Source: Acidobacteriota bacterium
GTDB taxonomy: Bacteria > Acidobacteriota > Terriglobia > UBA7540
Length of the DNA: 64,000 nucleotides
NCBI GenBank assembly: GCA_004298155.1
Contig: SCRD01000010.1
Span: 1 to 64,000, forward strand
Direction of reading: 5' to 3'
The position numbers were made by a program, and so were the translations under genes. Shown in pieces: positions 39,113 through 54,303 of the stretch; position 1 is the stretch's first letter; each line of letters starts with the position of its first letter. Below the pieces are notes generated by a model. It was not told the origin of the DNA. It saw only the letters and a program-made list of their open reading frames with translations, and did no database searches.

Positions 39113-39508
39113 ATGGCAACGTTGGGCCTGATTGAATACAAGGACGCCGGCCCGGAAGTGCGGGCGGTGTATGACGACATCATGGCGACGCGCAAGACGG
39201 ACTGGGTGAACAACTTCTGGAAGGCGCTGGCGCACGATCCGGCAACGCTGCGGCGGACGTGGCAAAGCATCAAGGAAATCATGGCCGAGGGCGCGCTTGA
39301 CCGCCTGACGAAGGAGATGATCTACCTGGCCGTGAGCGTCACCAACCAGTGCGGCTACTGCATCGCCTCGCACACCGCCGGCGCGCGCAAGGCCGGAATG
39401 ACCGATGCCATGCTGGCCGAGCTCGCCGCCGTGGTGGGCATGGCGAATGAAACCAACAGCCTGGCTGGCGCCTGGCAGATTGAAGTGGACGAGCAGTTCA
39501 AGACGTAA
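39113..39508 (+). CDS. Carboxymuconolactone decarboxylase/AhpD-like protein
   Basis: 131 aa. The CMD-fold redox motif CGYCIASHTAGARK (about 82-95) has the CxxC and following His of AhpD-type peroxidases. Upstream helix LTKEMIYLAVSVTNQ is typical. Likely a thiol peroxidase or disulfide-reducing partner in oxidative-stress defence; a decarboxylase function is less likely. SD GGGAGG at the correct distance from the ATG. Standing alone before the ion-channel gene. Confidence 0.9.
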   Translation: MATLGLIEYKDAGPEVRAVYDDIMATRKTDWVNNFWKALAHDPATLRRTWQSIKEIMAEGALDRLTKEMIYLAVSVTNQCGYCIASHTAGARKAGMTDAMLAELAAVVGMANETNSLAGAWQIEVDEQFKT

Positions 39509-53246: not shown

Positions 53247-53729
53247 ATGGAACCGAGACTTAATGCTTCAAAAGTAGCACCGGCAGCATACCGGGCCATG
53301 GCGGCTCTTGAAGGTTACGTAAAGCACTCATCAAACCTGGCGGCGCCACTGCTGGAGCTGGTAAGAATGCGGGCGTCGCAGATCAACGGCTGTGCCTATT
53401 GCCTGGATATGCACAGCAAGGATGCGCGGGTCGCGGGCGAGACCGAACAGCGCCTCTACACGCTGAGCGCCTGGCGGGAAACTCCATTTTTCACCGACCG
53501 CGAGCGCGCCGCCCTGGCCTGGACTGAAGCCATTACCCTGATCGCTTCAAGCAACGCGCCGGACGAAGTTTATGAGGAAGCACGCAAGCAATTCACCGAA
53601 GAGGAACTCGTAAACCTGAGCATCGCCATCGTGGCTATCAATGGATGGAACCGGCTGGCTATTGGATTCCGGACAGTTCCCGGCACCTATCAGCCGGGGG
53701 CGCAGAAGCAGGCCGCTGTGAAACCCTGA
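53247..53729 (+). CDS. AhpD-family carboxymuconolactone decarboxylase-like protein (Cys form)
   Basis: 160 aa. CMD fold with active motif NGCAYCLDMHSKDAR (about 47-61; CxxC then His), preceded by LLELVRMRASQI. Peroxidase or reductase partner of the AhpD type. The SD AAAGGAGG is ideal. It converges with a second AhpD-family gene at 53737, whose motif has an in-frame TGA at the second Cys; only 7 bp separate the stops. Confidence 0.92.
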   Translation: MEPRLNASKVAPAAYRAMAALEGYVKHSSNLAAPLLELVRMRASQINGCAYCLDMHSKDARVAGETEQRLYTLSAWRETPFFTDRERAALAWTEAITLIASSNAPDEVYEEARKQFTEEELVNLSIAIVAINGWNRLAIGFRTVPGTYQPGAQKQAAVKP

Positions 53730-53736
53730 GATCAAA

Positions 53737-54303
53737 CTATTTCCTCTTGCGTTTGCGTACGGTGCGCATCTCGGGTTCTGAATCGATGCCCAGTGCGTCG
53801 GCGACGCGATTGATGTAATTGAAATAGGCGATGACTTCGACGGCGTCCAGAATATCGCGGTCGCTGAGGCCGAATTTGCGAAGATTATCGACGTCCTGCT
53901 TGCGGACGGCGGCGGGGCTGTGGGTGACGAGATCGGCGAATTTTGCCAGGGCCTTGATGCGGGCGGATAGCCTGGCGCGACGATAGTTGTGCTTCACGTG
54001 TTCAGCCAGCTTCGCGTCGCCGCATTCCACACGGAGATCCTCCCCGTGAGCTTCGATTCAATAGACGCAGTGGTTGGCCCGGGATACGACGACGGCCAGC
54101 AGCTCGCGTTCGACGCGGGAAAGACCGGAAGGCGCATGCATGGTTGCCAGGTAGAGGCCCATCGAGGCGTGAAGGGTTTCCGGATTCAGGCTCTGGATCT
54201 TCAGGATGTTGAAGACCTTTCCGGCGCGTTTGACGGCCCTTGAGTATTCCCTCCTCAACTCGCCGGTCGCATCCTCAGGCTCAATGGTCTTGATCCATGG
54301 CAT
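53737..54303 (-). CDS. AhpD/peroxidase-related protein with in-frame TGA at the CxxC, candidate selenoprotein
   Basis: Read through, 189 codons (188 residues with Sec82). Open before and after a single TGA at 54058-54060. N-terminal half ends SRANHCVY; the frame continues as IEAHGEDLR and then a complete peroxidase-related C-terminus (FADLVTHSPAAV, FGLSDRDILDAVEVIAYFNYINRVADALGI). Cys homologues have NHC-x-x-C-xxx-H; the TGA falls exactly at the second Cys, giving CVYU-IEAH. AhpD-like CxxU proteins are a known selenoprotein class. A hairpin follows the TGA. If the cell lacks Sec insertion, it is a pseudogene by a Cys-to-stop change. Confidence 0.7.
54030..54048 (-). promoter_or_regulatory. 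Possible bacterial SECIS hairpin after the TGA
   Basis: In the mRNA sense, CACGG starts 10 nt after the TGA and pairs with CCGTG, with the loop GGAGGATCT whose first bases are G. Distance to the loop G (about 15 nt) and loop size are near the bacterial SECIS range. Short stem, so only suggestive. Confidence 0.5.

What the first reader, a model, noticed from the sequence alone, without database searches (positions are those of the whole stretch)
53737..54303. AhpD-family gene with TGA at the second Cys of CxxC: candidate selenoprotein
The only interruption in a complete 189-codon reading frame is a TGA exactly where Cys homologues have the second Cys of the redox motif (NHCVY-TGA-IEAHGEDLR). 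A chance stop is unlikely to hit that one codon. AhpD-like CxxU proteins are an established selenoprotein type, and a small hairpin with a G-rich loop follows the TGA at 54030-54048. A Cys-form relative is encoded convergently next door.
Basis: partly seen in the sequence, partly recalled or inferred. Interest (0 to 1): 0.85.

Follow-up and report, generated by a model that had tools for sequence, protein, structure and literature searches.

The report
AhpD-like CxxU selenoprotein gene
This Acidobacteriota genome encodes a peroxide-handling type of enzyme whose active site carries selenium, through an in-frame TGA codon read as selenocysteine; the case is convincing, but it belongs to a selenoprotein family already catalogued.

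Summary
On the minus strand, 54303-53737, a 188-aa AhpD-like frame (TIGR01926, 175 bits) is interrupted only by TGA at 54058-54060, exactly at the second Cys of CxxC. All 80 best relatives in GTDB genomes and the 29 best in 297 genomes of the same phylum carry TGA at that codon; Cys forms appear only at about 40% identity and below. The genome has selA, selB, selD (SelD itself has an in-frame TGA) and tRNA-Sec. The hairpin after the TGA fits the published bacterial SECIS model, is conserved beyond synonymous expectation (114/118 against 76 expected), and shows paired base changes. Selection is similarly strong before and after the TGA. Glu67, Cys79, Tyr81, Sec82 and His86 have the spacing of the AhpD proton relay. 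So it is a genuine selenoprotein, most likely a hydroperoxidase or disulfide reductase with Sec as the attacking residue (activity inferred). It is not new in kind: reviews list 'AhpD-like protein, TIGR01926, CxxU'. One extra: within this family the SECIS sits in two registers (loop 17-18 or 24-25 nt after UGA) on the same coding alignment, with at least two switches on the tree.

The parts
53737..54303 (-). Coding sequence of the 188-aa AhpD-like (TIGR01926 peroxid_rel) selenoprotein, ATG to stop
   Evidence: AGGAGG upstream
54058..54060 (-). In-frame TGA read as selenocysteine (Sec82), second position of C79-V-Y-U82
   Evidence: TGA in 122 of 122 Sec-class homologues
54030..54048 (-). SECIS core hairpin CACGGGGAGGAUCUCCGUG, 3-nt apical loop GGA (17 nt after UGA) or, in the longer fold, GAU (18 nt after UGA)
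   Evidence: model in PMC13188914
54016..54057 (-). Wider SECIS region (42 nt after UGA); with the UGA the fold has MFE -16.1 kcal/mol, z -2.3 against dinucleotide shuffles; z -2.1 against synonymous shuffles
54067..54069 (-). Cys79, first Cys of CxxU, presumed resolving residue; invariant in 122 homologues
54103..54105 (-). Glu67, predicted proton-relay residue, invariant in 122 homologues
   Evidence: spacing as in PMC3141380
54046..54048 (-). His86, predicted proton-relay residue, invariant in 122 homologues
   Evidence: spacing as in PMC3141380
53247..53729 (+). Convergent neighbour: CMD-domain (AhpD core) protein with CxxC, a distant paralogue, not part of the selenoprotein gene; ends with a normal TGA stop
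   Evidence: not found next to any of the relatives' genes

Best explanation
A functional bacterial selenoprotein of the AhpD-like TIGR01926 family. SelB with Sec-tRNA(Sec) binds the hairpin just after the UGA and inserts Sec at position 82 (shown by gene content, conservation and RNA structure, not by protein data). The protein is expected to fold as an all-helical CMD/AhpD domain. Sec82 attacks an organic hydroperoxide (or a disulfide), helped by Glu67, Tyr81 and His86, and the selenenic acid is resolved by Cys79 as a selenenylsulfide that a thioredoxin-like or other dithiol donor reduces (this chemistry is inferred from AhpD).
For: Complete Sec machinery in the same genome: tRNA-Sec 68.4 bits with anticodon tca, SelA 531 bits, SelB 370 bits, SelD 377 bits with its own in-frame TGA in KAAGUAAKLSP. 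TGA at the same codon in 80/80 GTDB relatives from Acidobacteriota, Planctomycetota, Chloroflexota, Actinomycetota and Gemmatimonadota, and in the 29 best of the same-phylum search. Purifying selection on both sides of the TGA. SECIS-like hairpin in 114/118 against 76 expected from synonymous recoding, z 7.8; the 42 nt after UGA have the lowest mean folding z of the scanned region (-0.99), against -0.15 for 8 non-TGA homologues. Paired changes G-C to C-G (stem A) and C-G to U-A (stem B). SelB above cut-off in 36/38 genomes with the Sec form against 11/31 without the gene, Fisher p 1.4e-7. Glu67, Asn77, Cys79, Sec82 and His86 invariant in 122, Tyr81 in 120; spacing identical to AhpD Glu118/Cys130/His132/Cys133/His137 and to PA0269 Glu36/Cys48/Tyr50/Cys51/His55 (PMC3141380).
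Against: No protein, 75Se or mass-spectrometry data. The base could not be checked in reads. Peroxidase activity, substrate and electron donor are inferred. Co-occurrence and Fisher tests are not corrected for shared ancestry; on supported branches only 5 (stem B) and 1 (stem A) independent contrasts exist, too few for significance, though none contradicts pairing. The simple hairpin rule used is also met by a third to a half of control windows, so it is weak alone.
Confidence: 0.94

Rival explanations
1. Pseudogene or sequencing/assembly error: a Cys codon turned into TGA, giving a truncated product.
For: A single base (TGC/TGT to TGA) would suffice; reads cannot be seen here.
Against: The same TGA occurs in 122 homologues from independent assemblies and several phyla, and selection continues after the TGA.
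Confidence: 0.01
2. UGA reassigned genome-wide (for example to Trp), or general read-through, rather than Sec.
For: The frame is open under TGA=sense.
Against: The neighbouring gene ends with TGA, the aligned residue in homologues is Cys, not Trp, the genome has tRNA-Sec/SelA/SelB/SelD, and SelD also carries an in-frame TGA.
Confidence: 0.01
3. It is a selenoprotein, but not itself a hydroperoxidase: a thiol-disulfide/selenenylsulfide exchange protein or an adaptor that reduces a peroxiredoxin, as AhpD does for AhpC.
For: AhpD acts as an adaptor for AhpC (PMC3141380); the CxxU motif suits disulfide reduction; no conserved neighbour gene tells the substrate.
Against: The relay set Glu-Cys-Tyr-Sec-His is intact, which in AhpD supports peroxidase activity.
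Confidence: 0.3

Closest known systems
AhpD-like selenoprotein family, TIGR01926/COG2128, CxxU (Sargasso Sea family, PMC1088965; listed in PMC13188914)
   Same: Same protein family model, same CxxU motif, SECIS after the UGA
   Different: First described from marine metagenomes; this member is from an Acidobacteriota genome, whose clade has a 3-nt-loop SECIS at 17-18 nt
AhpD of Mycobacterium tuberculosis and PA0269 of Pseudomonas (Cys forms)
   Same: AhpD core and proton-relay spacing Glu-12-Cys-3-Cys-4-His
   Different: Cys instead of Sec; Tyr replaces His132 of M. tuberculosis AhpD (as in PA0269)
Peroxidase-related proteins of solved structure 6k40, 3c1l, 2pfx, 2oyo
   Same: Closest solved relatives along nearly the whole length (E 4e-34 to 4e-30)
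   Different: Cys forms; the two alignments printed (6k40, 3c1l) show CxxC
Sestrin Sesn-A domain (Pfam PF04636, 31 bits; human Sestrin2 E about 4e-4)
   Same: Related fold and catalytic helix-turn-helix; Tyr127 and His132 conserved (PMC4674687)
   Different: Sestrin keeps only the first Cys (Cys125) and has Leu at the position of Sec
NF041238 AhpD_rel_CFYUT and NF053654 YciW-related (seleno)proteins
   Same: Other AhpD-type (seleno)protein families; NF041238 also has a CxxU motif
   Different: The selenoprotein scores 72 bits against the 175-bit cut-off for NF041238; NF053654 matches only the convergent neighbour, 58 against 310 bits

Membership tests
TIGR01926 AhpD-like (peroxidase-related) family | Score above the curated model cut-off | tested here: met
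   175.4 bits against 81.8, residues 2-178 of 188
TIGR01926 AhpD-like (peroxidase-related) family | CxxC/CxxU redox motif with Glu and His relay residues | tested here: met
   Glu67, Cys79, Tyr81, Sec82, His86
Bacterial selenoprotein | In-frame UGA aligned to Cys of homologues, conserved in other organisms | tested here: met
Bacterial selenoprotein | selA, selB, selC, selD in the genome | tested here: met
Bacterial selenoprotein | bSECIS: apical loop 3-9 nt, upper stem 4-16 bp, G in the first two loop positions, loop 16-37 nt after UGA | tested here: met
   loop GGA at 17 nt (8-bp stem) or GAU at 18 nt (4-bp upper stem); model from PMC13188914
Bacterial selenoprotein | Selenium actually in the protein | not testable with these tools
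   needs 75Se labelling or mass spectrometry
AhpD alkylhydroperoxidase (TIGR00777) | Score above the AhpD model cut-off | tested here: not met
   24 bits against 191.95: AhpD-like, not AhpD proper
AhpD alkylhydroperoxidase (TIGR00777) | Hydroperoxidase activity / AhpC reduction | not testable with these tools
   inferred only

The most novel reading that the evidence does not exclude
Within one essentially gapless stretch of the coding alignment this selenoprotein family carries its SECIS in two alternative registers: a 7-8-bp stem with a 3-nt loop 17-18 nt after the UGA (type A, most close Acidobacteriota relatives including the window) or a 6-7-bp stem with a 4-6-nt loop 24-25 nt after the UGA (type B, mainly Planctomycetota, Chloroflexota and Actinomycetota). 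The tree requires at least two switches, with a type-A pair (L069, L091) nested in type B. The insertion signal would thus have moved by about 7 nt while Sec insertion was kept.
Probability: 0.7. Interest if true: 0.42.

Novelty: new member of a known kind. Interest (0 to 1): 0.3.

Why it matters
It adds a well-supported, easily mis-annotated selenoprotein (an annotation that takes TGA as stop would cut it at 81 residues) to Acidobacteriota, a phylum not mentioned in the two reviews searched. The family keeps Sec strictly: no Cys form was seen above about 40% identity, so Sec seems hard to replace here. The two-register SECIS offers a natural experiment on how SelB recognition tolerates hairpin position.

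Tried and rejected
A weak SelA-like hit with an in-frame TGA (L011) was looked at as a possible second selenoprotein; its TGA is not in a Cys-type redox motif that I could recognise and it was left unresolved. Conserved operon partners: none next to the gene apart from lipA at two relatives. The convergent CMD gene as a functional partner: rejected for lack of conservation. Structure prediction was not run because solved homologues cover nearly the whole length.

Full report
What is there. The gene is on the minus strand of the window, 54303 to 53737, with AGGAGG upstream of ATG. Reading TGA as a residue gives 188 aa with a single internal TGA at 54058-54060. The protein belongs to TIGR01926 (peroxidase-related enzyme, 175.4 bits, cut-off 81.8) with a Pfam CMD domain, and aligns with solved Cys-form structures over nearly its whole length: 6k40 at 4e-34, 3c1l at 2e-31. 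The TGA stands where these have the second Cys of CxxC.

Is the TGA read as selenocysteine? The genome in which the window lies (5.2 Mb, 97.6% complete) has tRNA-Sec (68.4 bits against a cut-off of 47; ARAGORN anticodon tca), SelA, SelB and SelD, all over their curated cut-offs. SelD itself has an in-frame TGA in the motif KAAGUAAKLSP. A scan of GTDB genomes returned 80 relatives, all with TGA at the same codon and Cys three residues before it. The best 29 relatives in 297 genomes of the same phylum have TGA there too. Of 20 more distant or stop-free relatives fetched on purpose, 12 have TGA, 7 have Cys and 1 has Ser, so Cys forms do exist, at about 40% identity and below. The codon is therefore under long selection as UGA across Acidobacteriota, Planctomycetota, Chloroflexota, Actinomycetota and Gemmatimonadota.

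Selection after the TGA. Against nine close relatives, dN/dS is about 0.08-0.21 before and 0.08-0.19 after the TGA; the one value where synonymous sites are saturated (L030 upstream) is not usable. There is no decay.

SECIS. The 45 nt from the UGA fold at -16.1 kcal/mol, z -2.3. In a 36-39-nt fold the loop is GGA 17 nt after UGA; in the longer fold a slightly shifted version with loop GAU at 18 nt is better. Either fits the published bSECIS model: apical loop of 3-9 nt, 4-16-bp upper stem, G in the first two loop positions, 16-37 nt from UGA (PMC13188914). Across 118 distinct Sec-form genes, 114 have a fitting hairpin, against 76 expected when codons are replaced by synonyms from the same gene (z 7.8), and 33-56% of control windows elsewhere in the gene (this count allowed loops up to 14 nt starting from 14 nt, but all loops found are 3-6 nt and start 16-31 nt after the UGA). 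The mean synonymous-shuffle z is -0.99 in the 42 nt after the UGA, the lowest in the scanned region, and -0.15 in eight non-TGA homologues.

Two registers. The hairpins fall into type A (loop 17-18 nt after UGA) and type B (stem GACCUC...GAGGUC, loop 24-25 nt after UGA) in the same codons downstream of the UGA. In type A the pair at positions 13/23 (counted from 0 after the UGA) is G-C in 28 genes, C-G in 5 and G-U in 1. In type B, 20/33 is C-G in 56, U-A in 11 and U-G in 3. The same columns mostly do not pair in the other type. On a 127-row tree the type labels need at least two switches; L069 and L091 are type A inside the type B part. The covariation is strong by raw counts (Fisher p 2e-10 and 4e-6), but few independent contrasts lie on well-supported branches, so it is supportive rather than conclusive. 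No statement of such a register switch was seen in the papers read, but that search was not exhaustive.

Co-occurrence. SelB passes its cut-off in 36 of 38 same-phylum genomes with the Sec form; the other two (G266, G080) are 72-75% complete. It passes in 11 of 31 sampled genomes without the gene (p 1.4e-7, not corrected for ancestry).

How it likely works. Glu67, Asn77, Cys79, Sec82 and His86 are invariant in 122 homologues and Tyr81 nearly so. Their spacing is that of the AhpD proton relay (Glu118, Cys130, His132, Cys133, His137) and of PA0269 (Glu36, Cys48, Tyr50, Cys51, His55) as given in PMC3141380. I infer that Sec82 attacks a hydroperoxide and Cys79 resolves it, but an adaptor or disulfide-reductase role is not excluded. 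The family also shares the fold and part of the active site with the sestrin A domain, which keeps only the first Cys (PMC4674687; weak Pfam PA26 match).

Surroundings. The convergent gene 53247-53729 is a distant CMD paralogue (21% identity) and is not found beside the relatives' genes; only lipA recurs, in two. There is no operon clue to substrate or donor.

Novelty. AhpD-like CxxU selenoproteins of COG2128 were reported from the Sargasso Sea in 2005 (PMC1088965), were abundant in the Global Ocean Sampling data (PMC2398784) and are tabulated in 2022 and 2026 reviews, the latter under TIGR01926 (PMC9312934, PMC13188914). This is a new member of that kind. The verdict: a correct and well-supported reading of a gene that is ordinary but easily mis-annotated, with a modest extra in the two-register SECIS.

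Noticed in passing
L021:1501-2424 (own genome, contig C17, outside the window): SelD of this genome carries an in-frame TGA in KAAGUAAKLSP, so the genome probably has at least one further selenoprotein.
   Followed up: partly
window 54016-54057 (minus) and loci L026-L159: The SECIS hairpin of this family occurs in two registers (loop 17-18 or 24-25 nt after UGA) with at least two switches on the tree; L069 and L091 are type A within type B.
   Followed up: partly
L011:1501-1935 (own genome, contig C17): A weak SelA-like (PLP-enzyme) stretch reads through one TGA in the context SHLUEYTQMG; selenoprotein, pseudogene or error was not resolved.
   Followed up: partly
L144 and L146: Distant relatives with CxxS (L144) or TxxC (L146) instead of CxxC/CxxU, suggesting change or loss of the redox pair.
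   Followed up: no
L149: A relative with a second in-frame stop 22 codons before the Sec codon; may be a frameshift, a later start or a decaying copy.
   Followed up: no
window 39134-39403 (+): Another stretch in the window matches TIGR01926 weakly (58 bits, below its cut-off) without an internal stop.
   Followed up: no
L072, L073, L080, L083, L087: Ocean Actinomarina (OCS155) genomes keep this selenoprotein with a weak, short hairpin with GGUC loop (about -5 to -8 kcal/mol).
   Followed up: no
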